Shown piece by piece: positions 423 through 19,973 of a stretch of DNA of 20,004 bases. The DNA is taken from positions 1 through 20,004 of IMG/VR virus record IMGVR_UViG_3300006928_000153; one strand, 5' to 3'. The position numbers were made by a program, and so were the translations under genes. Each line of letters starts with the position of its first letter. Within the stretch, counting starts at the first letter, position 1. Below the pieces are notes generated by a model, which had not been told where the DNA came from, ran no database searches, and was given only the letters and a program-made list of their open reading frames with translations. Origin of the DNA: a virus.

Positions 423-998
423 ATGGCAAATTACGAAGCGACTAAATATGATTACTCAGGTGCAAGCCTTACTGGTATTGAAGGTATCCCTACAGCAACT
501 ATTATACCATGGTCTTCTTCTTCAGTACCATCAGGATATTTAGAATGTAATGGTCAAGCAGTTTCAAGATCAACGTATGCTGCTTTATTTGCAATCATAG
601 GTACAACTTACGGAGCAGGTGATGGTTCATCTACTTTTCTTGTTCCAGATCTTCAAGATAATATAGCATTAGGTAAATCTAACAACAAAGCTTTAGCGTC
701 AACAGGTGGTGCTAATACTGTAGCTAAAACTGGAAATATAGGTGGTTCAACAGCCAATGCAACTTTATCAACTCCACAACTTGCTTCTCATAATCACAAT
801 CAAGGAGTAGCTGCAGGTCCAGGTAGATTTAGAAAAATAAGTATACCCCAATATCAAGCAGCAGCTAAAAATGGATCAGCTACACCAAATACAGGTTCAG
901 GTGGTGGACATTCTCACAATATGAGCGCCAATTTTTCTGGGGATGCAACTTCAGTTATTCAACCTTATTTAACAATTATATACGTAATAAAAACTTAG
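423..998 (+). CDS. Phage tail-collar domain fibre-tip protein, copy A
   Basis: A 191-residue protein of the phage tail-collar/microcystin-dependent family. Residues about 25-80 carry the collar signature: a PWSSSSVPSGYLECNG segment followed by TYGAGDGSSTF and VPDL. The C-terminal half has two HxH motifs (residues 123-125 and 163-165) flanking a loop (about 126-158) unlike that of its two neighbours, then a conserved GDA..IQPYLTIIY end. In T4-type receptor-binding fibres, HxH motifs bind metal ions along the fibre tip; the same use here is inferred. An AGGAG ribosome site lies about 6 bases before the ATG. It is the first of three tandem paralogues and probably forms a trimeric receptor-contacting tip. 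Confidence 0.9.
   Translation: MANYEATKYDYSGASLTGIEGIPTATIIPWSSSSVPSGYLECNGQAVSRSTYAALFAIIGTTYGAGDGSSTFLVPDLQDNIALGKSNNKALASTGGANTVAKTGNIGGSTANATLSTPQLASHNHNQGVAAGPGRFRKISIPQYQAAAKNGSATPNTGSGGGHSHNMSANFSGDATSVIQPYLTIIYVIKT
764..792 (+). repeat. 29-bp identical anchor before hypervariable loop (copy A)
   Basis: These 29 bases, encoding the LSTPQLASH stretch, are identical in all three fibre genes (also 1348-1376 and 1944-1972) including third codon positions, although surrounding conserved codons differ. The block ends at the edge of the variable loop, so it could serve as a homologous-recombination anchor for loop exchange. Confidence 0.7.
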
Positions 999-1041
999 GA
1001 TAAATTATGTCAAACTACGAAGCAACAAAATATGATTTCGA
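990..1041 (+). repeat. 52-bp direct repeat at fibre gene junction (first copy)
   Basis: The end of fibre gene A, the spacer with its ribosome site, and the start of gene B match bases 1586-1637 (end of B, start of C) with a single C/T difference. It marks tandem duplication of the gene unit together with its translation signal. Confidence 0.8.
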
Positions 1042-1594
1042 CGCAGCAAACCTTACAGGTATTGAAGGAATTCCTACAGCAACTATTGTGCCTTGGTCTG
1101 ATTCTTCAGTCCCATCAGGTTTTTTAGAATGTAATGGTGCAGCAGTTTCAAGATCAACTTACTCTGCATTGTTTGCAATTGTAGGTACAACTTATGGCGC
1201 TGGGGATGGTTCAAGTACTTTTAATGTACCTGACTTACAAGATAACGTACCGGTTGGAAAATCAAATAACAAAGCAGTAGGTTCAACAGGTGGTGCTAAT
1301 ACTGTAGCAGCCACTGGAAACGTAGGTGGTTCAACAGCTAATGCAAGTTTATCAACTCCACAACTTGCTTCTCATAGTCACCCAAGAGCTGCAACTTATG
1401 TTAGACCTCCAAATAAAAACAACAACCCTGGACAAGATAACCCAGAGTATACAGCATTCGGTAACACAAATACTAGTTTAGGTAACGCTGGTTCAGGAGG
1501 TGCACATAGTCATAATATGAGTGCAAACTTTAGTGGTGATGCTGTTTCAGTTTTACAACCTTATTTAACTATAATATATATTATTAAAACTTAG
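1007..1594 (+). CDS. Phage tail-collar domain fibre-tip protein, copy B
   Basis: A 195-residue paralogue of the preceding gene. It has the collar signature at about 25-80 (PWSDSSVPSGFLECNG, TYGAGDGSSTF), the same spacing to the first HxH motif (123-125), and a second HxH at 167-169. The loop between them (about 126-161) is the longest of the three, is rich in Asn and Pro, and does not align with the other copies. The ATG follows TAGGATAAATT, where the stop of copy A overlaps the AGGA ribosome site. The 3'-end codons of this copy differ from A and C at many silent positions, whereas the block just before the loop is identical in all three. Confidence 0.9.
   Translation: MSNYEATKYDFDAANLTGIEGIPTATIVPWSDSSVPSGFLECNGAAVSRSTYSALFAIVGTTYGAGDGSSTFNVPDLQDNVPVGKSNNKAVGSTGGANTVAATGNVGGSTANASLSTPQLASHSHPRAATYVRPPNKNNNPGQDNPEYTAFGNTNTSLGNAGSGGAHSHNMSANFSGDAVSVLQPYLTIIYIIKT
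1348..1376 (+). repeat. 29-bp identical anchor before hypervariable loop (copy B)
   Basis: Second copy of the block at 764-792, identical base for base and again ending at the start of the variable loop. Confidence 0.7.
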
Positions 1595-1637
1595 GATAAA
1601 TTATGTCAAATTACGAAGCAACAAAATATGATTTCGA
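1586..1637 (+). repeat. 52-bp direct repeat at fibre gene junction (second copy)
   Basis: Matches 990-1041 with one mismatch. It spans the stop of copy B, the AGGA ribosome site and the first codons of copy C. Confidence 0.8.
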
Positions 1638-2184
1638 TGGGGCAAACCTTACTGACATTGAAGGTATCCCTACAGCAACTATTATTCCTTGGTCTGATTC
1701 TTCAGTGCCGTCTGGATATTTAGAATGTAATGGCCAAACAGTTTCAAGGAGTACTTATTCAGCATTATTTGCAATTGTAGGGACAACTTATGGTGCAGGT
1801 GATGGTTCCTCTACTTTTGCTGTTCCTAATTTGTCTGACAATGTAGCAATTGGAAAATCTAATAATAAAGCTTTAGCATCAACAGGTGGTGCTAATACTG
1901 TAACAACAACTGGAAACGTTGCGGGGAGTACAGCCAATGCAACTTTATCAACTCCACAACTTGCTTCTCATAGTCACCCCAAAGGATACGCTAATTTTAA
2001 TCCTGCTTATAGATCTAATAGACCAATGAGTCACCCATATCAAGGACCTACAGCCAGTCCATCTGGTTCAGGTAATACAGGTTCAGGTGGTGGTCACTCC
2101 CACAATATGAGTGCCAATTTTTCTGGGGATGCTACTTCGGTTGTGCAGCCTTATCTAACTGTAATGTATCTTATAAAAACTTAA
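1603..2184 (+). CDS. Phage tail-collar domain fibre-tip protein, copy C
   Basis: The third tandem paralogue, 193 residues. The N-terminal 120 residues align without gaps to copies A and B, with collar signature at about 25-80. HxH motifs lie at 123-125 and 165-167. The loop between them (about 126-158) is unique, with Tyr, Pro and Ser and an extra SHP. The last 30 residues (NMSANFSGDA and QPYLTVMYLIKT) are shared with the others. The gene ends one base before the stop codon of the opposite-strand oxygenase, with a terminator hairpin on the junction, so it is probably the last gene of the upstream late operon. Confidence 0.9.
   Translation: MSNYEATKYDFDGANLTDIEGIPTATIIPWSDSSVPSGYLECNGQTVSRSTYSALFAIVGTTYGAGDGSSTFAVPNLSDNVAIGKSNNKALASTGGANTVTTTGNVAGSTANATLSTPQLASHSHPKGYANFNPAYRSNRPMSHPYQGPTASPSGSGNTGSGGGHSHNMSANFSGDATSVVQPYLTVMYLIKT
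1944..1972 (+). repeat. 29-bp identical anchor before hypervariable loop (copy C)
   Basis: Third copy of the block at 764-792, identical in every base. Confidence 0.7.
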
Positions 2185-2784
2185 TTATTTTAACATCATC
2201 CAAGATGTTAAAATATATTTTTCACCAGAAAGTGGTGGGTTACCTCTGTGTAAATAAGGAAATGCTGCAGGCCAAATAACTATTCTACCTTTTTTAGGTT
2301 GTACTCTTTTTGAAAAATGTAAGAATTCTGTTTCTCCACCTTCTTCAACATCATTTAAATATATTGAATAAACAAAAGCTCTAGGTTCATTTTCATGTCC
2401 TTTTCCATGTTCTATATGCCAAACATGATAACCTTCTGTAGGTAAAGTTTTTTGTATTTTTAAATCTGTAAAATAAAAAGACTCTTCATAAGCTTGGTCT
2501 GCACCTGTATTTTTTACATAATGATTCCAAGCTATATCAAAATTTAACATCATTGGTTTTAATGATTCCCACCAAACATCTATATTATTAGGTGCTGCAA
2601 AATATTGTTGATCTTGTTTATGTGTTATAGATGATTTTTCAAAAGCTATTCTATTTAATGTATTATTAAATTTATTTTGATCTTCAAATAATTTAATAGC
2701 TTTATCGCATTCTTCTGGTCTAATATAATTATCATAGACACCTATGAAGTTAGTTATATTAACGGTTTTTTCAATCGCATCCAT
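2185..2784 (-). CDS. 2OG-Fe(II) oxygenase, prolyl-hydroxylase-like
   Basis: A 199-residue protein with the C-terminal double-stranded beta-helix pattern of prolyl-4-hydroxylase-like dioxygenases. These use Fe(II), O2 and 2-oxoglutarate to hydroxylate a substrate. Visible residues are H123 and E125 (an HxE variant of the usual HxD), a GGETEF turn at 149-154, distal H179, and K189 ten residues later as the likely 2OG-carboxylate contact. An AGAGGA ribosome site sits about 6 bases before the ATG. It is the last gene of a minus-strand run of four oxygenases and overlaps the upstream one by 31 bases, implying translational coupling. Its final codons form half of a terminator hairpin. The substrate is unknown. 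Confidence 0.88.
   Translation of the reverse strand: MDAIEKTVNITNFIGVYDNYIRPEECDKAIKLFEDQNKFNNTLNRIAFEKSSITHKQDQQYFAAPNNIDVWWESLKPMMLNFDIAWNHYVKNTGADQAYEESFYFTDLKIQKTLPTEGYHVWHIEHGKGHENEPRAFVYSIYLNDVEEGGETEFLHFSKRVQPKKGRIVIWPAAFPYLHRGNPPLSGEKYILTSWMMLK
2186..2215. terminator. Bidirectional intrinsic terminator between convergent operons
   Basis: A perfect 12-bp inverted repeat (2186-2197 with 2204-2215) encloses a 6-base loop. On the plus strand the stem is followed by ATATTTTTC, and on the minus strand by a T-rich run including GTTTTT. It sits where the fibre operon and the oxygenase operon meet tail to tail, so it can stop transcription from both sides. The stem overlaps the last codons and stop of the minus-strand oxygenase. 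Confidence 0.8.
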
Positions 2785-3332
2785 TTTAAATCCTCTTCGT
2801 GTGCTTTATTTCCTGTATTTTTAAAATACTTATCATATTGATGTCTTGTGAAATGTCCAGCTTTATCTACATAGTGAAAAAAAACTTGTGCCATACCTTC
2901 ACCTTTATATATGCCTGGTCTTTCATGTTTTTGAAAAACTCCATTATATATAATACCATCACCTTCATCCAATTCAAATTTTTTACCTTCAATTACAATA
3001 GGCCAGTTATCATTTTTTTTAATACATGCAGTAATAGATACTTCACAAGAAGGTCTATCTCTATGTTTACGTAGCGATCCTCCGTATACATAATATCTCC
3101 AATATGTATATGTTGGAAACAAACTTAATTTAGATTCTTTTTCTACCAAAGATAATTTAGTTTCTAACAAAGTATCCATTAAAGAATCATTGTACCACGC
3201 CGGAGAAAAAGATTGAGGATCAATAAAATAATCTTTAGTGGAATGTAGTTTATTAAAACAATATTTCTGAAGAATATTTAATTCTTCTTTACTAAAAAAA
3301 TTTTTAATTAATTTATTTTTTATTGTAGCCAT
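2754..3332 (-). CDS. 2OG-Fe(II) oxygenase-like protein (HRD...H type)
   Basis: A 192-residue protein resembling the Fe(II)/2OG dioxygenase fold. H90 and D92 form an HxD pair (LRKHRDRPSCEVS), followed by a beta-rich stretch ending in LDEGDGIIYNG and a distal H136 (KHERPG). A basic 2OG contact at the usual distance is not clear; R138 or K143 are the nearest candidates. The last 40 residues (GHFTRHQYDKYF onward) are an extra charged tail outside the core. It overlaps its neighbours by 13 bases upstream and 31 bases downstream, so all are probably co-translated. The ribosome site is weak. The family call is less certain than for the adjacent HTD-type protein. Confidence 0.78.
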   Translation of the reverse strand: MATIKNKLIKNFFSKEELNILQKYCFNKLHSTKDYFIDPQSFSPAWYNDSLMDTLLETKLSLVEKESKLSLFPTYTYWRYYVYGGSLRKHRDRPSCEVSITACIKKNDNWPIVIEGKKFELDEGDGIIYNGVFQKHERPGIYKGEGMAQVFFHYVDKAGHFTRHQYDKYFKNTGNKAHEEDLKWMRLKKPLI

Positions 3333-3865
3333 GCAACTATACTATACCTTGTTCCTTTTGTAATGGGTTGAATACCATGTGGATACATGAAATTACTTGG
3401 AAAAAATACTATTGATCCAGTGTTTAGTTTTAATCTTTTTATTTCTTTTTGTTTTTGATCTGCAAAAACTAAATCTCCACCTTCATACTTATTATTTAAA
3501 TTCATAATAATACTTAAATGTCTTGGTGCAGATGTGCCTTGATCGGTATGTGAATCATATTTTCCACCAACCCCATATTTTAATAAATCTATTTGATTAA
3601 TTTCAGAACTTTCCATCGCTGGAAATTTAATTTTATAAAAACTATATAATCTTTCTATTTCTTTCTTTATATAATTCCAATAAAAAATGTTTGTAGGAGT
3701 TTCATTATTTACATGAAAGCCTTTTACATTTCTTACATTTTTATGTAAGCCTCCAGTGGTAGTTAAATATTCTTTTGCTCTATGATCTATAAATGGTATC
3801 ATTTTTTTTATAAAATCTTTATCAATTATATTATCTAATTTAACAACTGCTTCTAAATGATCCAT
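3320..3865 (-). CDS. 2OG-Fe(II) oxygenase, P4H/PKHD-like
   Basis: A 181-residue protein with the most canonical motif set of the group. It has a Y-D-S-H-T-D segment with H106 and D108 as metal ligands, a GGDLVF turn at 129-134, a GSIVFFPSNFMYPHG strand with distal H163, and R173 ten residues later for 2OG binding. The length equals a single catalytic domain with no targeting signal, so it is probably a soluble cytoplasmic enzyme. Family members hydroxylate prolyl or other side chains; the phage substrate is unknown. It overlaps the next gene by 13 bases and follows the first gene of the run by a 7-base gap. Confidence 0.9.
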   Translation of the reverse strand: MDHLEAVVKLDNIIDKDFIKKMIPFIDHRAKEYLTTTGGLHKNVRNVKGFHVNNETPTNIFYWNYIKKEIERLYSFYKIKFPAMESSEINQIDLLKYGVGGKYDSHTDQGTSAPRHLSIIMNLNNKYEGGDLVFADQKQKEIKRLKLNTGSIVFFPSNFMYPHGIQPITKGTRYSIVAWLQ

Positions 3866-3872
3866 AATTTTA

Positions 3873-4376
3873 TTAACAAACTTTCCCAGCGTTGAAAGAT
3901 ATTATTAATCTTTCCTCGTCTTTTTTCAATGTTTTAACTTCATGAGGAATCATTGAAGGAAATAATAATAATGTATTAGCTTTAAATTTATGATCATATG
4001 GATTAAACTTTTTACTGTAGAAAACAGTTGGGCTAGGATTGTTTCCTTTTATATAAATAATTCCAGAATATATAGAAGATTCATGAAAGTGAATAGAGTG
4101 ACCATGATCTGTATTATATAACTGAGCCCAATTGTTATCTAGAAACAATTTATGTTTATCTAAAATATTAGTGATTTGTTTTTTTAAATTTTTTAATATA
4201 GGAAAATTCAAGATGTTAAATGTGGTAAAAGTAGTTTTACACTCTGAGATTTCTTTGGACCCATATGCATCTAAATTTTTTACCATCATTAAAATTTGAT
4301 TTACTTCTTCATTGGTAATTTTTAATATATATTCATAGAATAGATTTTCATGAGCAAATGGATCAAACTTTACCAT
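3873..4376 (-). CDS. Putative 2OG-Fe(II) oxygenase (2OG-FeII_Oxy_5-like)
   Basis: A 167-residue protein matching the pattern of the putative 2OG-Fe(II) oxygenase group represented by PF13759. The pattern is an H-x-H pair followed by Ser and SGIIYIKG (H96, H98, SG at 104-105), then LLLFPSMIPHEV with H145, and R156 in a closing RLIISFN. This signature differs from the three HxD/E-type proteins downstream, so the run is not a simple tandem duplication. It is the promoter-proximal gene of the minus-strand unit and starts 49 bases from the divergent plus-strand gene. The ATG is preceded in frame by a TGA, so no longer start exists; the ribosome site is weak. Confidence 0.83.
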   Translation of the reverse strand: MVKFDPFAHENLFYEYILKITNEEVNQILMMVKNLDAYGSKEISECKTTFTTFNILNFPILKNLKKQITNILDKHKLFLDNNWAQLYNTDHGHSIHFHESSIYSGIIYIKGNNPSPTVFYSKKFNPYDHKFKANTLLLFPSMIPHEVKTLKKDEERLIISFNAGKVC

Positions 4377-4425: not shown

Positions 4426-6393
4426 ATGCTACAAAAATTAAATTTCAAGCCTGGTTTTAATAAGATGACAACAGAATCCGGAGCCGAGTCTCAATGGGTT
4501 GATGGTGATTTTGTCAGATTTAGATATGGACTACCTGAAAAAATAGGTGGTTGGAATCAATTAACAGCAGGTAGTCTAACTTTACCTGGAGTAGCACGTG
4601 CTCAACACAGTTTTACAAGTATCGCTGGAGAAAAATATGCAGTGATAGGGACATCACAAGGTTTATTTCTATATTATGGAAATGACTTTTACGATATATC
4701 TCCGTTAGATACTGCTATTACTGGATTTACTTTTACATCTACAACTGGATCAGCAACCGTTACAATTAATAAAACATCTCATGGTTTAACTGCAGGTAGA
4801 TTTTTTACATTTACTTCTGTAACATTACCTGGAGGCGGTGCTACAGGATACACAACATCTGATTTTGAAGACACGCCTTATGAAGTTGTAACAGCAGATA
4901 CAAATAGTTTTACAATTACGATGGCATCAAATGAATCTGGAACTGGAATGACAGCTGCAGGTTCTGCAACTGTTAATCCTTACGTTCAAGTTGGTCCTAC
5001 ATTTCAAACAGCAGGATATGGTTGGGGCACAGATACTTGGAGCACATCAACTTGGGGCACAGAGAGAACAACTAGTGACGTAATTCTGGAACCAGGAAAA
5101 TGGAGTCTTGATAATTTTGGACAAGTATTAGTCGCAACTATTGCAGGAGGAAAAACATTTACTTGGAATGCAGGTGCAGCAAGCGCAAGAACAATTAGAG
5201 CGTCAACAACAACTACAAATTTTGAAACAACAAACAATCCAACGTCATCTAGATTAACACAAGTGTCAGATAGAGATAGACACTTGTTTCATTTTGGAAC
5301 AGAAACAACAATTGGTAATTCATTAACTGTTGATCCGATGTTTATAAGATTTTCTAATCAAGAAGATTTAAATACGTATGCATCAAATATTACAAATACT
5401 GCAGGTAGTTTTAGATTGGATAAAGGAAATAAAATTGTAGGAGCTGTATCTGGTAAAGATTATACTTTAGTTTTAACTGATAGCTCTGCGTATGTAATTC
5501 AATTTGTTGGTCCACCATTTACTTTTTCTGTAAAACAAGTTGGTACAAATTGTGGATTGATTGGTCAAAAAGCTTTGAGTTACTCTAATGGTATTGTATT
5601 CTGGATGTCAGGTGAAGGTGGATTTTTTGCATACGATGGTACTGTTAAATCATTACCTTGTTTAGTTGAAGACTTTGTATTTAATACTGATGGTGATAAT
5701 TTAGGTATAAACTTTAATGCAAGCGAACTTGTGTATGCAGAGCATAATACACTTTATAATGAAGTAAATTGGTTTTATCCAAAATCAGGATCAGAGCAAA
5801 TAGATAGAGTGGTTACATATAATTATGGGGAACAGGTTTGGACTACAGGATCACTAGCTAGAACAAGTTATATAGATACAGGTGTATTTGATGCACCCTA
5901 TGCAACAGAATATAATAAAACTGCAACTCCAAATTTTCAAATTCAAGGTATAACAAATAGATTTGGAGCATCAACTTATTATGCTCATGAAGTAGGAACT
6001 GATCAGGTAAACAGTTCAGGTACAACAGCGATTGCTGCTTTTATTAAATCTGGAGATTATGATATTACATCAAGTAAAAGCGCCCTGGGTCAGGCCACAG
6101 GAATGGTAAACTACAAAGGAGATGGAGAGTTCTTTATGTCTGTTAAAAGATTTATACCTGATTTTGCTATACAAACAGGTAATACAAAAATCACATTACT
6201 ATTAAATAACTATCCGAACAATACAGCATCTAGCTCACCGTTAGGTCCCTTTACAATTACATCATCTACTGATAAAGTAGATACCCGTGCAAGAGGAAGA
6301 CTCGTAGCACTAAAGATAGAAAACGATGGCACAGGTGAAACTTGGAGATATGGAACTCTAAGACTTGATGCACAACCAGACGGAAGAAGATAA
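4426..6393 (+). CDS. P22 gp10-like stabilisation/tail structural protein
   Basis: A 655-residue beta-rich protein opening with a motif set (GFNKMTTESGAESQWVDGDF, then VRFRYGLPEKIGGW) seen in phage structural proteins related to packaged-DNA stabilisation protein gp10 of P22. It has repeated blade-like segments (AVIGTSQGLFLYYG, LTDSSAYVIQFVG, GGFFAYDGTVKSLPC), consistent with a beta-propeller-like core that closes the head and joins it to the fibres. An inserted Ser/Thr-rich domain covers about residues 100-190. It is the first gene of the plus-strand virion operon and overlaps the next start by one base (TAATG). The gp10 assignment is from fold pattern and context; a generic tail or neck protein is the alternative. 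Confidence 0.72.
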   Translation: MLQKLNFKPGFNKMTTESGAESQWVDGDFVRFRYGLPEKIGGWNQLTAGSLTLPGVARAQHSFTSIAGEKYAVIGTSQGLFLYYGNDFYDISPLDTAITGFTFTSTTGSATVTINKTSHGLTAGRFFTFTSVTLPGGGATGYTTSDFEDTPYEVVTADTNSFTITMASNESGTGMTAAGSATVNPYVQVGPTFQTAGYGWGTDTWSTSTWGTERTTSDVILEPGKWSLDNFGQVLVATIAGGKTFTWNAGAASARTIRASTTTTNFETTNNPTSSRLTQVSDRDRHLFHFGTETTIGNSLTVDPMFIRFSNQEDLNTYASNITNTAGSFRLDKGNKIVGAVSGKDYTLVLTDSSAYVIQFVGPPFTFSVKQVGTNCGLIGQKALSYSNGIVFWMSGEGGFFAYDGTVKSLPCLVEDFVFNTDGDNLGINFNASELVYAEHNTLYNEVNWFYPKSGSEQIDRVVTYNYGEQVWTTGSLARTSYIDTGVFDAPYATEYNKTATPNFQIQGITNRFGASTYYAHEVGTDQVNSSGTTAIAAFIKSGDYDITSSKSALGQATGMVNYKGDGEFFMSVKRFIPDFAIQTGNTKITLLLNNYPNNTASSSPLGPFTITSSTDKVDTRARGRLVALKIENDGTGETWRYGTLRLDAQPDGRR

Positions 6394-7088
6394 TGGCAAA
6401 CATTTTTGATGTACCACTTTATAATTCAATTATATATCCACGAACTCCAGCTATAGGTATAGAAACTTTAAATCAAATTCCACCTATGGAAGATGATCTA
6501 CCATACGCACCTGAATATGGTGAAGGTTTTTTAATGAATACTACATTACCGTATGAGCAATTTCTTACACCAAAAATAGACATGGGAGCTATGGGAGTTA
6601 CTCCACAATTAGCTCAAAACATTCCTACAACCTTTAGTAGTCTACCTCCAAATCTAGGTGTTGCTACTCAGGCTAATGAAGAAACAGAAGAATATGAAGT
6701 TGATGAATTTGGTTATAGAAAAGAACCAAATAAATTAGGAGGCATTTTAGATTTATTTGCAGGCATAGCAATACCTGGTTATGGTATACTAAAAAATATG
6801 GCTCGAGGTGGTTTAGACGGATTAAGAAGATTAGGTCAATCTGATTTTGCTCAATCAGAAACTCATATGGAATTTTTAGATAGAATAAGAAACAAAAACA
6901 CTAGAACAAATGATTCTTCAGCAGCAGACCTACAAACTGAAATGGCAAACAGATCATCAGCTGTTCAAACTGATCAAGATAGAGGTAGAGGAGATAGACC
7001 TGGTGGAGCTAATCGTTCTACTTCTTCTAGAGGACACAGCTACAGTAGAGACAGTTCATCATTTGGAAAGAGTTTTCACGGTGGCTAA
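6393..7088 (+). CDS. Hypothetical virion protein with RG/RS-rich tail
   Basis: A 231-residue protein in three parts. Residues 1-100 are Pro-rich with PRTPAIGIETLNQIPP. A glycine-containing hydrophobic stretch lies near 120-140 (LFAGIAIPGYGILKNMARGG). The last 60 residues are disordered and rich in Arg, Ser and Gly (DRGRGDRPGG, SYSRDSSSFGKSFHGG). Arg/Gly-rich tails often bind nucleic acid, and the hydrophobic part could contact membrane, so a packaged or ejected protein is possible. It starts on the stop of the preceding gene (TAATG) after a GGAAG ribosome site, so expression is coupled. I do not recognise the family. Confidence 0.8.
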   Translation: MANIFDVPLYNSIIYPRTPAIGIETLNQIPPMEDDLPYAPEYGEGFLMNTTLPYEQFLTPKIDMGAMGVTPQLAQNIPTTFSSLPPNLGVATQANEETEEYEVDEFGYRKEPNKLGGILDLFAGIAIPGYGILKNMARGGLDGLRRLGQSDFAQSETHMEFLDRIRNKNTRTNDSSAADLQTEMANRSSAVQTDQDRGRGDRPGGANRSTSSRGHSYSRDSSSFGKSFHGG

Positions 7089-7588: not shown

Positions 7589-7852
7589 ATGAATAAAGAT
7601 AAATTAGAACACACTCACGATAATGGCGTTACTCACTCTCATGAAGGTGGTGATGTTCCACATACACATGATATACCAAAAATAGATTGTGTTAGTACAA
7701 CAACATACAGAAATACTAAAACTGGAGAAGTGTTTAAAGAGAAAGTAGAAGGACCTGATATTGTACAAGATGTTACAGTTCAAATTACTAATAAAGGTCT
7801 TGAAGTATTTCAGAAAGTAATGAATCAAAAAAATGATAAAGATAATAAGTAA
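7589..7852 (+). CDS. Small protein with His-rich metal-binding-like N-terminus
   Basis: An 87-residue protein whose first 30 residues hold three HxH or HxHx motifs (HTHDNGVTHSHEGG, PHTHD). The rest is a short beta-rich domain ending in a charged tail (NQKNDKDNK). The His pattern suggests binding of Fe, Zn or Cu; HxH series bind metal in fibre tips, but this protein lacks the collar domain. It overlaps the downstream Fe(II)-dependent oxygenase by 20 bases, so an iron-handling or virion role is possible, both inferred. There is no clear ribosome site; the start is preceded by a small dyad. Confidence 0.78.
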   Translation: MNKDKLEHTHDNGVTHSHEGGDVPHTHDIPKIDCVSTTTYRNTKTGEVFKEKVEGPDIVQDVTVQITNKGLEVFQKVMNQKNDKDNK

Positions 7853-8357
7853 CGTCTTAAATAAAGAAGAGTTGTTTGCCCTGCATACAGGTTTGGTTTC
7901 AAATAATATGTGGTCATTAAATAGAAATAGCACAATAAATGGAATAGGTGGTGCTTTTCCTGGAGTTATATTTATGGATAATGAGGAAGTAGTATATAAT
8001 GATTCTTATTGGTTGGGATATTTTAATTGTTTATTTGATAGAATAAATACAGAATTACGAAAACAACATAATTTTCAAATTCAAAGAAGAATAAAAAGAA
8101 TAGCTTTGAATGCTCAAAATGATAATCATTTTACAGAATTTCATCAAGACAGTAATGATACTAGTTATAGTATTGTAGGATTTTTAACACCGCAATGGGC
8201 CGAAGATTGGGGAGGAGAATTAAATATAGAAGGAAAAGTTATTAAATATAATCCAGGTGATTTTATATTATTTGACTCTAACCAACTACATGCATCACAA
8301 CCAATAAAAAAAATACCATATTGGAGAACATCAGTTAGTTATGTCATTCACAAATAA
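7833..8357 (+). CDS. 2OG-Fe(II) oxygenase coupled to glycosyltransferases
   Basis: A 174-residue single-domain Fe(II)/2OG dioxygenase. Metal ligands are H104 and D106 (HQD), with a WGGELNIEG turn at 126-134, NPGDFILFDSNQLHASQP with distal H153, and R165 as the 2OG contact. It resembles the prolyl-hydroxylase-like group but is not a close copy of any of the four minus-strand oxygenases. It overlaps the preceding gene by 20 bases and the following glycosyltransferase by 17, a tight coupling that argues for one pathway: hydroxylation, then sugar transfer to the new hydroxyl. The substrate (protein, glycan or nucleotide) cannot be read from the sequence. Confidence 0.9.
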   Translation: MIKIISNVLNKEELFALHTGLVSNNMWSLNRNSTINGIGGAFPGVIFMDNEEVVYNDSYWLGYFNCLFDRINTELRKQHNFQIQRRIKRIALNAQNDNHFTEFHQDSNDTSYSIVGFLTPQWAEDWGGELNIEGKVIKYNPGDFILFDSNQLHASQPIKKIPYWRTSVSYVIHK

Positions 8358-9288
8358 TAATCCTAGAGGTGGAACAGAATTACAATTTGAGTTTTTACAA
8401 AAACATGTAGATTCTAAAATATTAAATCAGGTACAAATATGTACATCAGTGCCTGAAAAGATTCCATTACATCCAACTAAAGTAAATATACTTTGGCAAA
8501 AAAATTCTTACGATCAACCGAATCTTGCACCATGGTTTAGTGATTCAACTAATCACAGTAAGTACGATTGGTATGTATTTAATAGTCATTGGTCATATGA
8601 AAAGTTTAGAACATACTTTAAATTACCTACTGAAAAATGTGTTGTTATAAAAAACGGTGTAGAGAAAATAGAACCTGTAGCAACTACATATCAGAAGGGA
8701 AAAGAAATTAAGATAATACATCAAAACACACCTTGGAGAGGATTGAATGTTTTATTAGGTGCGATGCAGTTAATAAAGAACCCACTAATTACATTAGACG
8801 TATATTCTTCTACAGAAGTATATGGAAAAGATTTTTACGAACAGAATGATAAATATTATAAAACACTTTATGAACAAGCAGATTTATTACCTAATGTAAA
8901 TTACATCGGTTACAAATCAAATGAATATATTAGAGAACATTTAAAAAATTATAGAATGTATGCATATCCAAGTACATTTGAAGAAACATCTTGTATCTCT
9001 TTATTAGAATGTATGTCAGCAGGTTTGTATTGTATAACAACAGATCTGGGTGCATTGTTTGAAACAGGTGCAGAGTTTCCTATCTACATTCCATATACAG
9101 ATAACTATAAATTATTGGCTACTAAATTTGCTGCTGCTATCGAAGCAGCTGCACAATCTTTAGAAAGTGAAGCAGTAAACGAACATTTAAAATTTCAAAT
9201 TAAATATACAAATAAATATTATAATTGGGATAAACAGGGTTTATCTTGGACACGATTTTTACAAGGAGCAATCAATGCAAAACAATGA
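8341..9288 (+). CDS. GT4-like (GT-B fold) glycosyltransferase
   Basis: A 315-residue protein with the marks of a retaining GT4-type glycosyltransferase. A short N-terminal half begins at a PRGGTE glycine loop (8-13) and contains YDWYVFNSHW (75-84). An IKNGVE motif follows at 103-108. The C-terminal nucleotide-sugar domain has an E-x7-E pair at E215 and E223 (YPSTFEETSCISLLECMSAG). It has no membrane segment. It would transfer a sugar from an activated nucleotide donor; donor and acceptor are unknown. It overlaps the oxygenase before it by 17 bases and the second glycosyltransferase by 14. At 315 residues it is shorter than typical GT4 enzymes, with a reduced acceptor domain. Confidence 0.88.
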   Translation: MSFTNNNPRGGTELQFEFLQKHVDSKILNQVQICTSVPEKIPLHPTKVNILWQKNSYDQPNLAPWFSDSTNHSKYDWYVFNSHWSYEKFRTYFKLPTEKCVVIKNGVEKIEPVATTYQKGKEIKIIHQNTPWRGLNVLLGAMQLIKNPLITLDVYSSTEVYGKDFYEQNDKYYKTLYEQADLLPNVNYIGYKSNEYIREHLKNYRMYAYPSTFEETSCISLLECMSAGLYCITTDLGALFETGAEFPIYIPYTDNYKLLATKFAAAIEAAAQSLESEAVNEHLKFQIKYTNKYYNWDKQGLSWTRFLQGAINAKQ

Positions 9289-10174
9289 TCCAATATGGTT
9301 TAATAAACAAGAACCAAATAAAGACACTTATCAAACTATAAAAACAGGTAGTGTTGTTACCGAAATAAATGTAGGTGGTAAACCTAAGTATAAAATTATG
9401 GTATGTACACCATGTCACTCTGATGTGTCTATGCATTACACACAAGCGGTGTTAAAGTTTCAACAAGAGTGTATTAAAAATAATATACTAGTTAGTTTTA
9501 CATTATTAAAATCATCTTTAGTTACACAAGGTAGAAATCTATGTGTAGCTGATTTCTTGAGTCATGAACACGATTATGAATATTTATTGTTTATAGATTC
9601 AGATATAGATTTTCAGTTTTCTACTATCATGAAAATGATTGAAAAAGATAAAGATGTTATCGCATGTCCATATCCAATGAAGACTATCGATGAAGATAAA
9701 ATGTGGCTAGCACTTACAGAAAAGTATGAAATGATAAGAAAGAAAAGCGATGTTATCAAGTCTGGATATATGTATCCAATAAAGGTACCAGATAAAAACA
9801 GAATTGTTATGGAGAATGATATAATAGAAACAACGCATGTGCCTACAGGATGTATGTTAATAAAAAGACATGTTCTTACAAAAATGATAGAAAAATATCC
9901 TGAATTAGAGATATTTCAACCAACTATTATTAATGGTAAAGAAGTAAAGAAACCTAATTTTTATAATTTATTTGATACTTTACATGACCCAGATACTAAG
10001 AGATACTATGGCGAGGACTTTGGTTTTTGTCAAAGATGGACAGATATGGGTGGTAAAGTATTTGCTTATGTGTCTGACTATATAACACATGTTGGAGAGC
10101 ACTCTTATTGTGGTCGTTTCTTAGATGAATTACAGTCTTTAAAACGTGTTGACGATAGCGAAAAAATCAAATAA
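9275..10174 (+). CDS. GT-A fold (DxD) glycosyltransferase
   Basis: A 299-residue protein resembling phage and Anp1-like GT-A glycosyltransferases. It has an N-terminal strand IMVCTPCHSDVS (41-52) and a TQGRNLCVADFL helix (84-95). The metal- and donor-binding DSD of LLFIDSDIDF lies at 108-110. TTHVPTGCMLIKR covers 186-198, a GEDFGFCQRW acidic motif 246-255, and HVGEH 272-276. These fit a Mn-dependent enzyme using a nucleotide sugar. The ATG follows an AAGGAG ribosome site by 6 bases and overlaps the upstream glycosyltransferase by 14 bases. It ends the oxygenase-glycosyltransferase cassette; a 52-base gap follows. Confidence 0.88.
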   Translation: MQNNDPIWFNKQEPNKDTYQTIKTGSVVTEINVGGKPKYKIMVCTPCHSDVSMHYTQAVLKFQQECIKNNILVSFTLLKSSLVTQGRNLCVADFLSHEHDYEYLLFIDSDIDFQFSTIMKMIEKDKDVIACPYPMKTIDEDKMWLALTEKYEMIRKKSDVIKSGYMYPIKVPDKNRIVMENDIIETTHVPTGCMLIKRHVLTKMIEKYPELEIFQPTIINGKEVKKPNFYNLFDTLHDPDTKRYYGEDFGFCQRWTDMGGKVFAYVSDYITHVGEHSYCGRFLDELQSLKRVDDSEKIK

Positions 10175-10226: not shown

Positions 10227-11507
10227 ATGACAATATCACGTATGCAACAACCGAGACAAATGTATCAGGATGGCAGCATCATGCCTAGACTAAATCAATT
10301 AGGTAGTGGTGTTTCTTCTGCAGAACAAATGTTACAAGGTATTAATCAAAGATTAGATTCAGCTGAATCTACTTTAGGTGAAGGTGGTGCTATGCAACAA
10401 CCCGCTTTGCAACAACCAATTGGACAACCAACACAAACGACTCCTTTTAATGGAAGAACTGTTGGTCTTATGCAACTTCCTCTTGGTGGTATGTTAGGTC
10501 CTACAATACCAACTGCAAATAATGTATCTCAAGGTAGGGAATCCTTTTTTGGTCAACCTTTGTTTGATACAGATGGATTTAGATTAGGAGATCAAAGATA
10601 TGGAACTGGTTTAGTTGGTGGACCATCAATGGCATTACCTGGTTCCGGTTTAACAAATCAAACACCATTTCAATCACCAATAGTAGGAGCTATGAGAGGC
10701 ATGGCAGCAGATGGTGGAATGATGGGTAGACAAAATTATGGCTTAGGTAGCCTTGTTAAATCAATTGGTAAAGGGATTAAAAAATTTGTTAAATCTGATT
10801 TAGGTAAAGCAGCACTTTTAGGTGTAACTGCTTTTGGATTACCTGGAGGAGCATTGGGTATGAAAGGTTTTTTACCACAAGCTTTTAAAACTGGAGCAAA
10901 ACAATTTTTATTTGGTGGAGGTACAAAATTTTTACCAGGACCTGCAGTAAAACAAGCTGCAGTTTCAAAACCAGGTATTTTTGGCGCACTTAAAAATTTT
11001 GTAGGTTCAAATATAGGTACAATAGCTTCAACAGTTATTCCATCTGTATTAGCTGCAGCAGGAGCTAAAGAAGAAGATATGCCGGAACTTCAACAAGATT
11101 CAGGAAAACTAGCTATGTTGTTAGAAAAAGGATACAGAAATTTAAATCCAGGTGTGTCAGACGAAGAAGTTGCTGAATTTGTAAGAACAAATGTAGCAGA
11201 AGGAGGTAGAATCGGTTATGCTATGGGTAGTCCAGAAGATAACGCGATTCAGGCAGCAGGCATCGAGGGTCTTCGATTAAATAAAAACCCTGCAGGAGTA
11301 ACTGAATTAGACCTTAGAGAAACAGGTGGATTTATTCCTCCAGTTGGTGTAAAAGAAAAGGCAGATGACATTCCAGCAATGTTATCAAATAACGAATTTG
11401 TAATGACAGCAGACGCTGTAAGAGAATTTGGAGACGGTGACGTCGATAAGGGTGCAGAACGTATGTACGCTATGATGAAAACATTAGAAAACGGAGGAAG
11501 AGTATAA
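10227..11507 (+). CDS. Gly/Gln-rich virion protein with DDIPAMLSNNEFVM motif
   Basis: A 426-residue probable virion protein. Residues 1-170 are low-complexity, rich in Met, Gln, Gly and Pro. About 172-290 is an amphipathic and hydrophobic region (GLGSLVKSIGKGIKKFVKSD, then ALLGVTAFGLPGGALGM). The end contains DDIPAMLSNNEFVMTADAVR, a motif also seen in other phage tail or tape-measure-type proteins, then a short helix. Glycine-zipper-like hydrophobic stretches suggest membrane insertion during DNA delivery. No ribosome site precedes the ATG; an in-frame ATG at 10242 is an alternative start. It overlaps the next gene by one base (TAATG). The exact role is unknown. Confidence 0.8.
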   Translation: MTISRMQQPRQMYQDGSIMPRLNQLGSGVSSAEQMLQGINQRLDSAESTLGEGGAMQQPALQQPIGQPTQTTPFNGRTVGLMQLPLGGMLGPTIPTANNVSQGRESFFGQPLFDTDGFRLGDQRYGTGLVGGPSMALPGSGLTNQTPFQSPIVGAMRGMAADGGMMGRQNYGLGSLVKSIGKGIKKFVKSDLGKAALLGVTAFGLPGGALGMKGFLPQAFKTGAKQFLFGGGTKFLPGPAVKQAAVSKPGIFGALKNFVGSNIGTIASTVIPSVLAAAGAKEEDMPELQQDSGKLAMLLEKGYRNLNPGVSDEEVAEFVRTNVAEGGRIGYAMGSPEDNAIQAAGIEGLRLNKNPAGVTELDLRETGGFIPPVGVKEKADDIPAMLSNNEFVMTADAVREFGDGDVDKGAERMYAMMKTLENGGRV

Positions 11508-13275: not shown

Positions 13276-16200
13276 ATGGCGACATATGACCCAACAAAAA
13301 ACTTCCCCACAAAAAAGAAGTTAGCAAAAGGTGAAATAGAAGATTATATTGATCTTACTCCTGAAGCTGAAGAAGATAACGAGATATCACAATTTGAAGC
13401 TGGACTTGCAGGTGTTGCATCAGGTATTTTAAAAATACCTGAAGGCTTTGTATCTTTAGGTGCTGAACTTATGGATGCAACAGGTTTATCACAAAATGCA
13501 GCGGCAAAAGTAGAACAAGTTTTTGACAAAATAAATCCATTTGAAGAAATAGCAGAGCAAAAAACTGCAGGTAAAATTGTAGAAGCATTAATACAAATGG
13601 GTGTGCCCGCAAGTATTGGTGCAAAAATTGCATCTAAATTAGCAACCAAAGCATTACAAGCAAGAAAAGCTGGAACGTATGTAAATCTAAAAGGTAAAAA
13701 CGTACGTAAAGGTATGCAACAAGTTTATAAATTAAATGATAAAGCAAGAGCTACAAGATTTGGAGCTGCAGTGGTTGGAGGTGCAACCGGTGAAGTATTT
13801 GTAGGTGATGCAGAAAAGATAGGAACATTTGGAGATGCATTTCAAATTGGACCAACACAATTAGATACAGAAGAATCAGCTGATCCAAAAGAAGATGCAG
13901 CAAGAAAGCTTTTAAACAGAGTTAAATTTGGTGCAGATTCAGTATTATATTTTCCATTTGTATATGGTGCAACTAAAATAGTAGGTAAGGTTGGTAAGTT
14001 TGGAAAAGATTTAGCATTTAGTTCTTCTAAAATAAATAAAAGAATAGATCAAATAGCAGGAGCCGTAAGGCCAACATCAAATAAACCAGAGGCTATGTTT
14101 TTAGCAAAGAATCAAGAGAATGCTCGTAAATCTGCTGACGCTAACTTTGCAATGGAACAAGTAAAAAGAATAGATAATGAAGTTGGTAAAATGTTTCCAA
14201 GTATTAAAACTTTATTTAATAAAGGTCTAAGAGAAGATTATCAAAAACAACAAGCAGAGTTTTACAAAGATCTAAAAACTTTAATGTTTGAAGGTGATAT
14301 GTCTAAAAAATTAGGTGATACACCTATCGCTAAAAAATTACAAAAAACAATGACTGATGGTGGTTTAAATTCAGAATCAAGAAAAATAGTTTTTGATGCT
14401 ATATATAATTCTAGACAAAAGTTTGTAAATTTAGTTGAAACTATTAAAGAAGGTAGCACAGCTGCTGTAACATTACCAAAAGATGTAAGAAAACTATCGG
14501 GACTAATGGGTGATAGATTAAAAATTATGTTGGGCGGCACATATAAAATATTTCAAAACCCATATGTAGATGCATTAACAGGTTATAAACCAACGGATCA
14601 ATCTATAAATAATGTAAAAGAAATATTAAAAAGACACGGTCAAAAACATGGAAGAGAATTATCTGATGATGAATTATCATACAGAGTAAATGAAATATTA
14701 GATAGTGCAATTAAGTTTACACCTAAAACACAATTACCATCATTTAAAATGACTGATTTAACCATAGGTGCAAAGACTCCAGATGTTAGAAAAAACTTTG
14801 TACAAATGATGAGCAAAAAAAATAAAAATGGTGATCCTGCTACTGAGATTATTGGTAAAGGAAGTAAGGCATTTAGAGAATTATTTGGAGAAGTAGATGA
14901 TGCAAGAGAATCTATTTATAGTGGAATTGGATTATTATCTAATCTTGCAAGAAGATCAGAGTTTATTGATGATGTATTAAAAGCAAATGATGAAGCTCTA
15001 GAAAAACAGACTAGAAAACTTTTTTATGCAGATAAAAATGAAGCAATTAAACAACTTGGAGCCGGTGGTCTAAATAAAATTGTATCTTTAGATGAAACAC
15101 TGGAAGGTATGTTTAAGAATGGAGTTCTTGTAAACAGACTAAAAGGATTACACACAACACAAGAGATAGCCGATTCTTTTGAAGCAGTAAACAAACTTAG
15201 TAATTTTTTTATACGAGAAGGTAAAGTAGCTGATGCATATAAGTATATATTTTTATATCCAAAGGCAGGAGCACAGATTGCAAAAACAGTTCTATCACCT
15301 ACAACACACATAAGAAACTTTTTATCTGCATCTGCTTTCTCTGTTGCTAACGGTACATTATTTACAAATCCTTCATTGATTGTAAGAGCAATGAACAAAG
15401 CACGTAAGTCTGTTCAGTTAGGTGTTAGATCACCTGAGGCGATGGATGAATATAGAAGATTGTTAGAGTTAGGTGTTGTGAATACCCAAACAAAAATGGG
15501 AGACTATCAAGCTTTGTTAAAAGATATTGAATTAAATCCTGATGGTGGTTTCTCAACTAATGCATTTAAAAGAATGCTACAAAAATTATCTAGAGCAACT
15601 AAACCTGCAACAGATTTATACACAGCTGAAGATGATGTTTATAAAATTTATAACTATTGGGTAGAAAAAGAAAGATTAGGTGATGCATATTTAAAAGCTG
15701 GTATTAAAAAAACTAATCAACAATTAGAAGAAGAAGCAGCTAACATTGTAAGAAACACTGTACCCAACTATGCATATGTATCTGATATTGTAAAAGGTTT
15801 AAGGTCAACACCTTTTGGTAACTTTGCATCTTTCCCAACTGCAATTATGAACAGCGCTGTTGGTATAGGTAGTAGAATAACAAGAGAAATGAAACATTCT
15901 AAACCTACAAAAGGATCAAATATGACACCTATGGTTTTTGAAATAGGTAAAGGTTTTGTTAAAAATGACAATCCTTTATATGGAATTGGTATGAAGAGAT
16001 TAGTTGGATCTGCAACTGCTTTTGGATCAATAGGAGTTGGTTTAGGTGCAGGATTTAAAGCTGTCAATGGTACAACAGATGATCAAGAAGCAGCTCTTGA
16101 AAGATGGGTTGCACCGTATGAAGTTGGTGACAAGAAATTTATTTCTTATGAAGAAGATGAAAATGGAAAACGAACATATTATTATCAGAACTGGAGTAAT

Positions 16201-17298: not shown

Positions 17299-17516
17299 TG
17301 CCTAACGGTGATAAATTAAGACCTAAAACTACAAGAGAACATTTACTTGCTATCTACGGATATATAACGGGTATGAAAAAAGACATGAAACACATGCATA
17401 ATGGTATTCACGATTTGGGCGGTAAGATAGATAAAATCTATTGGGCATTATTAGCGACGGTGGGGGCTGTCGCACTTTTATTATTAGAGAAAGTTATAGA
17501 TAAAGGTTGGTTCTAG
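17298..17516 (+). CDS. XhlA-like holin / lysis-associated membrane protein
   Basis: A 72-residue protein with a basic, helical N-terminal half (MKKDMKHMHNGIHDLGGKID) and one membrane segment near the C-terminus (about 48-64, IYWALLATVGAVALLLLEK), ending in KVIDKGWF. This layout matches XhlA-type phage holin accessory proteins and other single-pass holins, which open the inner membrane for lysis. The start shares TAATG with the large virion gene and has an AGAGGA ribosome site 8 bases upstream. No endolysin gene is visible beside it, so the lysis role is inferred. Its stop overlaps the stop of the opposite-strand helicase. Confidence 0.7.
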   Translation: MPNGDKLRPKTTREHLLAIYGYITGMKKDMKHMHNGIHDLGGKIDKIYWALLATVGAVALLLLEKVIDKGWF

Positions 17517-18946: not shown

Positions 18947-18999
18947 AATTTGCTTTTTCTTTCTAAAAGTGTATATATTATTACAAAAGGAAAAAGTCA
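18947..18999 (+). promoter_or_regulatory. Divergent intergenic region with plus-strand promoter candidate
   Basis: This 53-base gap separates the helicase from the next module. Toward the plus strand, TATATT (18974-18979) is a good -10 element with only a partial -35 (TTGCTT, 18950-18955, 18-base spacer). AAAAGGA (18985-18991) is the ribosome site for the gene at 19000. A minus-strand promoter is not clear. Confidence 0.4.
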
Positions 19000-19338
19000 A
19001 TGCCAAAAGTGTATTTAGTACAAGACATCCCTGTCGATAGAGAAACCGGTCAACCCAAATATAATATAATGGGTGCACAAAAATATGGCGAGATTACGGT
19101 TATGCTTCCTGCAAGAGCACAAATGATTTTTTCACCAGGACCTTTGATTTTTCAAATAAGAGATAAATTAAAAAGTTTTACAGAAGAAGATTATTTATTA
19201 TTATCTGGTGATCCTGCAATTATTGGAGTGACATGTTCAATAGTTTCTGATATGACTAACGGCAAATACAAGTTGTTAAAATGGGACAGACAGGAAAAAA
19301 CATACTACCCAATCGAAATAAATATTTTTCAGAACTAG
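19000..19338 (+). CDS. Hypothetical protein opening the early/DNA module
   Basis: A 112-residue protein, not recognised. It starts MPKVYLVQDIPVDRETGQPK and is a mixed alpha/beta single domain with a central hydrophobic strand (GEITVMLPARAQMIFSPGPL) and a C-terminal basic patch (KYKLLKWDRQEKTYYPIEI). No catalytic motif or membrane segment is visible. Its own ribosome site (AAAAGGA, about 8 bases upstream) and promoter-like elements suggest independent expression. It is the first plus-strand gene after the inverted helicase. The position suggests a replication- or takeover-related role, but function is unknown. Confidence 0.8.
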   Translation: MPKVYLVQDIPVDRETGQPKYNIMGAQKYGEITVMLPARAQMIFSPGPLIFQIRDKLKSFTEEDYLLLSGDPAIIGVTCSIVSDMTNGKYKLLKWDRQEKTYYPIEINIFQN

Positions 19339-19368
19339 TTGACAAACTAGAATTATCCTATATATACA
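19339..19368 (+). promoter_or_regulatory. Sigma70-type promoter with perfect TTGACA
   Basis: TTGACA (19339-19344) is followed by overlapping TATATA/TATACA candidates (19361-19368; spacer 16-18) in the 49-base gap after the TAG at 19336-19338. It overlaps AACTAGTT (19333-19340), with a second AACTAG at 19345-19350. AAAGG (19376-19380) then serves the ATG at 19388. It is the best host-like promoter in the window. Confidence 0.6.
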
Positions 19369-19387
19369 TTTTACGAAAGGCAAAATT

Positions 19388-19936: not shown

Positions 19937-19973
19937 ACAACTAAAATACTAAACTAATAAAGGAGTAAATAGT

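What the first reader, a model, noticed from the sequence alone, without database searches (positions are those of the whole stretch)
7833..10174. Hydroxylase-GT4-GT-A cassette with nested overlaps: candidate hydroxylate-then-glycosylate pathway
A 2OG-Fe(II) oxygenase (H104, D106, H153, R165) overlaps a GT4-like enzyme by 17 bases, which overlaps a DxD enzyme by 14. Such coupling implies one pathway. Installing a hydroxyl and then adding two sugars would parallel hydroxylysine glycosylation of collagen or the hydroxymethyl-base glycosylation used by some phages. Here it sits inside the virion operon, making a virion protein or packaged DNA the likely target. I know of no named system with this exact arrangement; novelty is not proven.
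Basis: partly seen in the sequence, partly recalled or inferred. Interest (0 to 1): 0.72.

Follow-up and report, generated by a model that had tools for sequence, protein, structure and literature searches.

The report
Phage sugar-transferase pair with optional hydroxylase
A virus that probably infects the ocean's SAR11 bacteria carries two side-by-side sugar-adding enzymes, probably used to decorate its own surface fibres, and the hydroxylase gene in front of them looks like an exchangeable add-on, not a fixed third step of one pathway.

Summary
In detail: 2OG-Fe(II) oxygenase (Ox) 7833-8357, GT4 8341-9288 and a DxD GT-A enzyme 9275-10174, overlapping by 17 and 14 bases, catalytic residues conserved. 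The window is a whole IMG/VR record resembling the late region of HTVC027P/HTVC023P-type pelagiphages.

The "three-gene cassette, one pathway" reading is not supported. GT4 and GT-A lie within 60 bp in 146 of 147 measurable contigs, but Ox sits before GT4 in only 11 of the 80 best contigs of the GT4 search (4 are near-copies of the window). Both cultured relatives have the pair and no Ox. Of 46 Ox loci, 21 are before GT4, 20 in oxygenase arrays, 5 elsewhere. A recombination breakpoint lies at the Ox/GT4 border of the window itself. The slot can also hold another, unnamed gene.

Most likely the pair builds a short glycan on a virion appendage: homologues, in reversed order, lie next to giant repeat-protein genes in six of six loci (marine virus AG-345-L05 and five related contigs). 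Host-surface glycan and DNA remain rivals; in four other T4-like phages the GT-A homologue lies among replication genes. Hydroxylate-then-glycosylate survives only as a minor, testable option.

The parts
7589..7852 (+). orf87: small protein of unknown function before the slot; His-rich N-terminus present only in some relatives
   Evidence: (no PHROG); a match lies somewhere in 175 of 178 GT4 locus records with over 700 bp upstream (position and strand of the match not checked there)
7833..8357 (+). Ox: 2OG-Fe(II) oxygenase (H104, D106, H153, R165); accessory gene in the orf87-GT4 slot
   Evidence: slot statistics; breakpoint
8341..9288 (+). GT4: glycosyltransferase (E215-x7-E223), first gene of the conserved pair
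   Evidence: 17-base overlap with Ox
9275..10174 (+). GT-A: DxD (D108-D110) glycosyltransferase of phrog_1574, second gene of the conserved pair
   Evidence: 14-base overlap with GT4
8341..8400 (.). Recombination breakpoint zone between the orf87-Ox block and the GT4-GT-A block
   Evidence: 100-base bins: identity to L164 falls here from 91-98% to 61-85%; identity to L005 rises here from at most 63% to 80-92%
2185..4376 (-). Array of four genes (oxA-oxD), the other usual location of Ox-family genes in relatives
   Evidence: three have Pfam oxygenase hits above the cut-off, 2754-3332 has none (PHROGs match only)
423..2184 (+). Three tandem tail-collar paralogues, candidate virion acceptors (inference)
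   Evidence: PF07484 in the first and third; the middle one by sequence likeness only

Best explanation
The conserved unit is a two-gene glycosylation module, GT4 then GT-A, between orf87 and the next virion gene in this group of presumed SAR11 podoviruses. GT4 probably transfers a first sugar and GT-A a second, building a short glycan on a late-made target. The target is most likely a virion appendage protein (tail collar, fibre or adhesin), with receptor binding, host range or protection of the particle as the gain. Ox is a separate enzyme, a small 2OG-Fe(II) hydroxylase of a kind these phages often carry several of. In this lineage it was recombined into a variable slot directly before GT4. 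Shown: gene classes, catalytic residues, conserved pairing, optional and mosaic nature of Ox. Inferred: sugar order, virion target, benefit. Unknown: donor sugars, the acceptor, whether Ox touches the same acceptor.
For: Pair: adjacent within 60 bp in 146 of 147 measurable contigs; present at the same place in HTVC027P (72/62% identity) and HTVC023P (54/51%). Ox optional: slot holds Ox in 11 of 80 GT4-search and 6 of 80 GT-A-search contigs, four of each being near-copies of the window; orf87 abuts GT4 in 60 and 70; a U-type gene alone is there in 7 and 3; 2 and 1 unresolved. Of 46 Ox-search loci 21 are in the slot, 20 in the oxygenase array, 5 elsewhere; one of the latter was read and has Ox behind a Peptidase_M15_3 gene and no GT4 in its contig. 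Two array-Ox contigs run from the virion gene to the downstream virion genes with no GT between. No Ox in the phage collection at 1e-5 nor in the HTVC027P, HTVC023P, 023Pt_psg01 and DSL-LC04 records. Breakpoint at the Ox/GT4 border. One clade for slot-resident Ox (plus L183) is rejected (p-AU 0.0036; run after a first tree had been seen). Virion target: late structural neighbourhood, GT-A close behind tail-collar genes in cyanophage ACG-2014f, and GT-A then GT4 with a giant repeat-protein gene on at least one side in six of six loci (AG-345-L05 and five related contigs, two of which look like copies).
Against: In four other T4-like phages (phiM12, Cr30, OC, DLP6) the GT-A homologue sits among replication or recombination genes and GT4 lies elsewhere, which points to DNA or another intracellular target for some homologues. 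Published work on pelagimyophages reads their glycosyltransferases as host O-chain modifiers (PMC7029224). I found no virion mass spectrometry in the papers seen. Repeated movement of Ox into or out of this one slot could also mean functional coupling. The two sugar steps and their order are untested.
Confidence: 0.5

Rival explanations
1. Hydroxylate-then-glycosylate: Ox hydroxylates a residue of a virion protein and GT4 and GT-A add two sugars to that hydroxyl, as in collagen hydroxylysine glycosylation.
For: Gene order, same strand and overlap in the window. Ox entered or left the same slot more than once. GT-A model matches mimivirus R699 (Z 15.1) and COLGALT1 (14.5), besides STIV A197 (16.5) and Mnn9 (14.7). 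Ox fold neighbours include prolyl hydroxylases. Virus precedent: mimivirus L230 hydroxylates and glucosylates collagen lysine and R699 glucosylates galactosylhydroxylysine (PMC9546862, passages). Other oxygenases of the same phages could serve where Ox is absent.
Against: Most fetched relatives have the pair and no Ox, and Ox occurs without the pair nearby. Breakpoint between them. The top LH3 match (residues 293-541) lies outside the only active GT domain, 33-277, in the accessory domain said to have lost function (PMC6082870, passages). No run of six or more Gly-X-Y in the window, the scanned parts of G001 or the HTVC027P stretch; six Gly-rich low-complexity runs occur in reading frames of the HTVC023P stretch (G001 15001-19986 not scanned).
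Confidence: 0.12
2. The pair modifies the host's surface polysaccharide during infection and blocks adsorption of rival phages or re-adsorption to debris; Ox is unrelated.
For: Published interpretation for glycosyltransferases in SAR11 myophages (PMC7029224, passages). GT4 shows weak, far-below-cut-off matches to exopolysaccharide and LPS enzymes in NCBIfam.
Against: Virion-gene location; homologues next to giant repeat-protein genes. Neither excludes it: the published case also lies beside tail-fibre genes.
Confidence: 0.22
3. The pair glycosylates modified bases in phage DNA.
For: Replication-gene location of GT-A homologues in phiM12, Cr30, OC and DLP6; thymidylate-synthase-type genes in phiM12 and Cr30; AlkB-type nucleic-acid oxygenases are among the best structural matches of Ox (Z about 11-12); thymine-hypermodification genes in clades V, VIII and IX of HTVC023P-type phages and a putative glucosyltransferase in that region in clade II (PMC9599517); a 2OG gene near the pair in AG-345-L05 has a sub-cut-off Tet_JBP hit (0.0024).
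Against: No PF00303 or PF00145 gene in 10 relatives searched, including a 53.9-kb near-identical contig; most of the seven IMG/VR ones may be incomplete and one record (023Pt_psg01) lacks the pair. PF00303 also absent from OC, DLP6, AG-345-L05 and ACG-2014f. Ox has no Tet_JBP hit. [quoted passage not shown] The PF18723 kinase search had no positive control and says nothing.
Confidence: 0.08

Closest known systems
GT4/GT-A genes gp80-gp81 of Pelagibacter phage HTVC027P and gp77-gp78 of HTVC023P
   Same: Same two genes, order and genomic place; the annotated pair overlaps by 17 bases in HTVC027P and 14 in HTVC023P
   Different: No Ox gene between the small upstream ORF and GT4; no functional test seen
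Collagen hydroxylysine pathway: LH3/COLGALT1 in humans, L230/R699 in mimivirus
   Same: 2OG hydroxylase plus glycosyltransferases; GT-A fold resemblance
   Different: Ox has no PDB sequence match below E 0.25, no collagen-like substrate found in the parts scanned, genes separable
Glycosyltransferases of the host recognition cluster of pelagimyophages
   Same: SAR11 phages, glycosyltransferases near tail-fibre genes (PMC7029224, passages)
   Different: Described there as mostly GT8 and read as O-chain enzymes; here a GT4/GT-A pair in a podovirus-type genome
Mycobacteriophage virion glycosylation (Che8, Rita)
   Same: Phage glycosyltransferases with glycans reported on capsid proteins, as cited in PMC11256854 (passages)
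   Different: Unrelated phages; homology of the enzymes was not tested here
2OG-Fe(II) oxygenases of HTVC023P-type pelagiphages
   Same: Ox-family genes occur in such arrays; eight non-orthologous oxygenase AMGs reported (PMC9599517, section 7)
   Different: A slot before GT4 is not described in the sections I read

Membership tests
2OG-Fe(II) oxygenase superfamily | HxD...H...R residues on a double-stranded beta-helix | tested here: met
   Residues invariant in 26 proteins; model pLDDT 78.4 matches 2OG oxygenases: 3dkq Z 13.0, PiuC 9ghl 12.2, AlkB types and PHD2 about 11-12; PF13640 above cut-off
Glycosyltransferase family 4 / Glycos_transf_1 | Pfam match above cut-off and EX7E motif | tested here: met
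   PF00534 3.6e-13; E215/E223 invariant in 28. EX7E as a hallmark is recalled
GT-A glycosyltransferases | GT-A fold with DxD metal motif | tested here: met
   Model pLDDT 74.6; best matches are GT-A-type domains; D108xD110 invariant in 50. No CAZy family assigned
Hydroxylysine-type hydroxylation and glycosylation (LH/COLGALT) | Hydroxylase and glycosyltransferases act as one pathway (here judged by being kept together) | tested here: not met
   Ox absent from most fetched pair-bearing contigs and present without the pair nearby; breakpoint between them. Another oxygenase could stand in, so function is not excluded
Hydroxylysine-type hydroxylation and glycosylation (LH/COLGALT) | Collagen-like Gly-X-Y acceptor encoded by the virus | tested here: inconclusive
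   No run of six or more Gly-X-Y in the window and scanned G001 parts; G001 15001-19986 not scanned; the acceptor could be non-collagenous
Glycosylated hydroxymethyl-base DNA systems | Base hydroxymethylase (thymidylate-synthase family) or C5-methyltransferase plus TET/JBP oxygenase | tested here: not met
   0 of 10 records for PF00303 and for PF00145, controls positive in 9 and 10 of 14; no Tet_JBP hit for Ox. Several records may be fragments
Virion-protein glycosylation systems of phages | Glycan on a virion protein that depends on the phage glycosyltransferases | not testable with these tools
   Needs mass spectrometry; only genomic context was available
Temperate-phage seroconversion operons (gtrA-gtrB-gtr type) | Membrane flippase, bactoprenol glucosyltransferase and a membrane serotype-specific transferase | not tested
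   No transmembrane prediction was run; the definition is recalled

The most novel reading that the evidence does not exclude
The slot before GT4 is an exchangeable modifier port of a phage glycosylation line: different tailoring genes (Ox, the unnamed U-type gene, or both in the order U-Ox) are repeatedly recombined directly upstream of one constant GT4/GT-A pair, so that phages vary the acceptor hydroxyl or the glycan of a tail adhesin and with it host range. In AG-345-L05 and related contigs the same pair is likewise surrounded by possible tailoring genes (DUF6445 in six of six loci, sulfotransferase in three, 2OG oxygenase in two, an FkbM methyltransferase domain in the one whose GT4 gene was scanned for it besides AG-345-L05, which lacks it) and giant repeat proteins.
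Probability: 0.17. Interest if true: 0.72.

Novelty: new member of a known kind. Interest (0 to 1): 0.36.

Why it matters
HTVC023P-type phages are described as widespread and among the most abundant pelagiphages (abstract of PMC9599517). In the papers my searches listed I saw no test of what their glycosyltransferases and many 2OG oxygenases do. Separating the constant pair from the exchangeable oxygenase tells an experimenter what to assay: two cultured phages carry the pair without Ox, so glycans on their virions can be sought without the hydroxylase question. If the fibres are glycosylated, it would be a new layer of phage surface variation in some of the commonest marine bacteria.

Tried and rejected
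Overlap as proof of one pathway: rejected, because orf87 overlaps GT4 in the same way when Ox is missing. orf87 as a dedicated partner of the pair: first favoured (a match in 175 of 178 locus records), then weakened, because weak matches (E 0.002-0.03) also occur in three contigs where no pair was found. LH3 as the nearest relative of GT-A: dropped as evidence for hydroxylysine specificity, since the matched part is the accessory domain.

Relatives of GT-A in bacterial genome contigs (25 loci): the ten best are nine short metagenome-bin contigs and one 47.8-kb Pelagibacteraceae contig, perhaps of phage origin (not checked). Of the 15 weaker ones, mostly Beijerinckiaceae, three were examined; Pfam found mostly housekeeping neighbours, no hint. 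The U-type gene has no hit in Pfam or NCBIfam, one PHROGs hit at E 0.093 and one weak phage match (2e-3); I suspected an arginase-like fold from its HHHD motif, untested. The HTVC027P infection transcriptome defines temporal classes, but the section I read gives none for gp80/gp81. phiM12 and DLP6 papers: passages gave no usable statement on modified DNA. The first Ox tree with two outgroups had branches of length 10 and needed 10 changes of the slot label; it was replaced by one without them. PDB sequence searches: nothing below E 0.25 for Ox, 0.28 (ribosomal proteins) for GT-A, nothing up to 0.01 for GT4. In the VIA-align lists a family not shown is not excluded.

One truncated Ox (L204) was dropped from the tree.
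Full report
What is there. The window is the whole of a 20,004-base virus record, about 33% G+C, with no tRNA gene found. Its only near match among 50,697 phage records is Pelagibacter phage HTVC027P (24% of the window covered at 76% identity; the virion protein 4426-6393 is 72.6% identical over its full length). The gene order from the tail-collar genes to the helicase broadly follows HTVC027P.

What each enzyme is. Ox belongs to PF13640 (1.3e-8). Its model (mean pLDDT 78.4) matches 2OG oxygenases: Foldseek lists prolyl-4-hydroxylases, PHD2 and vCPH among the best; the second aligner ranks a putative Shewanella oxygenase (3dkq, Z 13.0), AlkB types, PiuC (12.2) and PHD2 (11.2) within about 2 Z units, so the fold does not tell the substrate. 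GT4 is PF00534 (3.6e-13). The third protein has no Pfam match above cut-off, but its model (pLDDT 74.6) is a GT-A fold, nearest to the accessory domain of LH3 (Z 16.7), STIV A197 (16.5), mimivirus R699 (15.1), Mnn9 (14.7) and COLGALT1 (14.5). The LH3 paper gives residues 33-277 as the only active glycosyltransferase domain and says the accessory domain may have lost its function (PMC6082870, passages). All three genes are under purifying selection (dN/dS 0.07-0.26, seven pairs).

Is it a cassette? I fetched relatives from IMG/VR: the best 80 loci each for GT-A and GT4, and 46 for Ox, and mapped 15 window proteins on them. GT4 and GT-A lie within 60 bp of each other in 146 of 147 contigs where both ends could be measured; in the exception they are 536 bp apart (L121). 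Ox lies directly before GT4 in 11 of 80 contigs of the GT4 search and 6 of 80 of the GT-A search; four in each set are near-copies of the window, leaving 7 and 2. In 60 and 70 contigs orf87 abuts GT4; in 7 and 3 a different gene of about 170 aa (U-type) lies between; 2 and 1 were cut, unknown or lacked the GT4 start. U and Ox occur together in four contigs, in the order orf87-U-Ox-GT4 in three (L100/L202, L168, L179) and U-Ox-GT4 in the fourth, whose contig begins inside U (L203). Of 46 Ox loci, 21 are in the slot, 20 in the oxygenase array, and 5 elsewhere. The five are: three contigs whose Ox proteins were collapsed as identical, of which the one I read has Ox directly behind a Peptidase_M15_3 gene in a capsid-gene region; one slot-like locus cut at the contig end (L183); one locus cut at its start (L204). 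GT4 was found in 6 of the 20 array records, which are fragments. Two array-Ox contigs (G016, G017) show the virion gene and then the downstream virion genes with no glycosyltransferase match between. HTVC027P and HTVC023P (records titled complete genomes) have the pair and no Ox; 023Pt_psg01 has neither. Four large pair-bearing contigs (38-42 kb, perhaps incomplete) also have no Ox.

The window is itself a mosaic at this border. Against contig L164 the DNA is 91-98% identical in bins from 7600 to 8399 (orf87 and Ox) and 61-85% from 8400 to 9399 (GT4 and the start of GT-A, near which L164 ends); upstream, 6000-6399 is 71-85%. Against L005, which has no Ox, it is at most 63% before 8400 and 80-92% through GT4 and GT-A. 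Against L051, which has orf87 but no Ox in the slot, orf87 is 94-98% identical. So the Ox and the pair now in this genome have different recent histories. A tree of 37 Ox proteins (17 slot, 18 array, 2 other) needs 8 changes for the slot label (shuffled mean 12.4, 4 of 500 shuffles as low, so the label is clustered), and one clade for the slot-resident ones with L183 is rejected (p-AU 0.0036). Caveats: only 10 of 33 inner branches are well supported, and the test was run after a first tree had been seen. Ox has probably entered the slot, or left it, more than once. That can mean a recombination hot spot or selection for the place; the data do not decide.

What the pair may do. In the pelagiphages it sits among virion genes. 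Homologues of both genes occur together in several T4-like phages. In marine virus AG-345-L05 the order is DUF6445 gene, sulfotransferase, 968-aa kelch-like repeat protein, GT-A, GT4, DUF6445 gene, 916-aa laminin-G protein, 2OG oxygenase. Five further IMG/VR contigs found with its GT-A (L254 and L255 give the same match coordinates) have GT-A then GT4 then a relative of its second DUF6445 gene, with a kelch-like repeat protein on at least one side; their source and taxonomy were not checked. In one (L253) the GT4 gene carries an FkbM methyltransferase domain and a tail-fibre-like protein lies upstream. In cyanophage ACG-2014f the GT-A gene follows tail-collar genes, and a glycosyltransferase and a nucleotide-sugar epimerase come two genes later. 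These neighbourhoods favour a virion adhesin as target. Against this, in phiM12, Cr30, OC and DLP6 the GT-A homologue lies near sliding-clamp or gp46/47 genes, and pelagimyophage glycosyltransferases have been read as host O-chain enzymes (PMC7029224, passages).

DNA as target. No thymidylate-synthase-family or C5-methyltransferase gene was found in 10 relatives, including the 53.9-kb contig G001 that carries the same three proteins at 100% identity; the controls rang in 9 and 10 of 14 genomes. Other clades of this phage group do carry thymine-hypermodification genes (PMC9599517, section 7 and part 1 of section 10 read), so the option is not closed for the group.

What is in print. PMC9599517 reports three glycosyltransferases and eight non-orthologous 2OG oxygenases in HTVC023P-type genomes and does not link them in the parts I read. 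I saw no description of this slot in search listings (titles and starts of abstracts only) for oxygenase, glycosyltransferase and fibre glycosylation (5 of 5 papers listed), phage and glycosyltransferase terms (15 of 3,023 listed) and pelagiphage glycosyltransferases (10 of 4,189 listed). Supplements and most subscription papers were not seen, so this is weak evidence of novelty.

Verdict. The enzymes and overlaps are real, the pathway claim for all three is not supported, and what remains is a conserved phage glycosyltransferase pair with an exchangeable upstream gene. I give 0.5 to the pair acting on a virion appendage with Ox as an independent accessory (the accessory part alone I hold at about 0.85), 0.22 to host glycans, 0.12 to hydroxylate-then-glycosylate and 0.08 to DNA; the rest is for targets not thought of.

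Noticed in passing
L063 3586-4089; also L064, L070, L087, L099, L101, L104, L131, L132, L158 and, with Ox, L100/L202, L168, L179, L203: An unnamed gene of about 170 aa (motif HGYDEYNxxNIDHHHDF) occupies the same slot before GT4; no hit in Pfam or NCBIfam and only E 0.093 in PHROGs.
   Followed up: partly
window 2185-4376 (-): Four adjacent genes read away from the virion operon, three with Pfam 2OG-oxygenase hits; substrates unknown. PHROGs names relatives 'ferrochelatase' and 'DNA endonuclease V', which may be mislabels of oxygenases (my inference).
   Followed up: no
window 423-2184: Three tandem tail-collar paralogues of 191-195 aa with like ends and differing HxH-containing middles, a possible receptor-binding variation set.
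   Followed up: no
window 7589-7852: orf87 carries a His-rich N-terminal stretch (HTHDNGVTHSHEGGDVPHTHD) that many homologues lack altogether, as if an optional metal-binding tag.
   Followed up: partly
L212 and L252-L256: AG-345-L05 and related contigs: GT-A/GT4 pairs next to giant kelch-like repeat proteins, with sulfotransferase (3 of 6), FkbM methyltransferase (seen in L253) and DUF6445 genes (6 of 6): a candidate adhesin-decoration locus.
   Followed up: partly
phiM12 16408-17385, Cr30 65871-66719, OC 10322-11128, DLP6 29740-30597 (record coordinates): GT-A homologue embedded near clamp and recombination genes of T4-like phages; annotated as hypothetical in three and as putative glycosyltransferase in OC.
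   Followed up: partly
G001 1590-2102 (-): A second, distant Ox paralogue (31% identity) elsewhere in the near-identical 53.9-kb contig.
   Followed up: no
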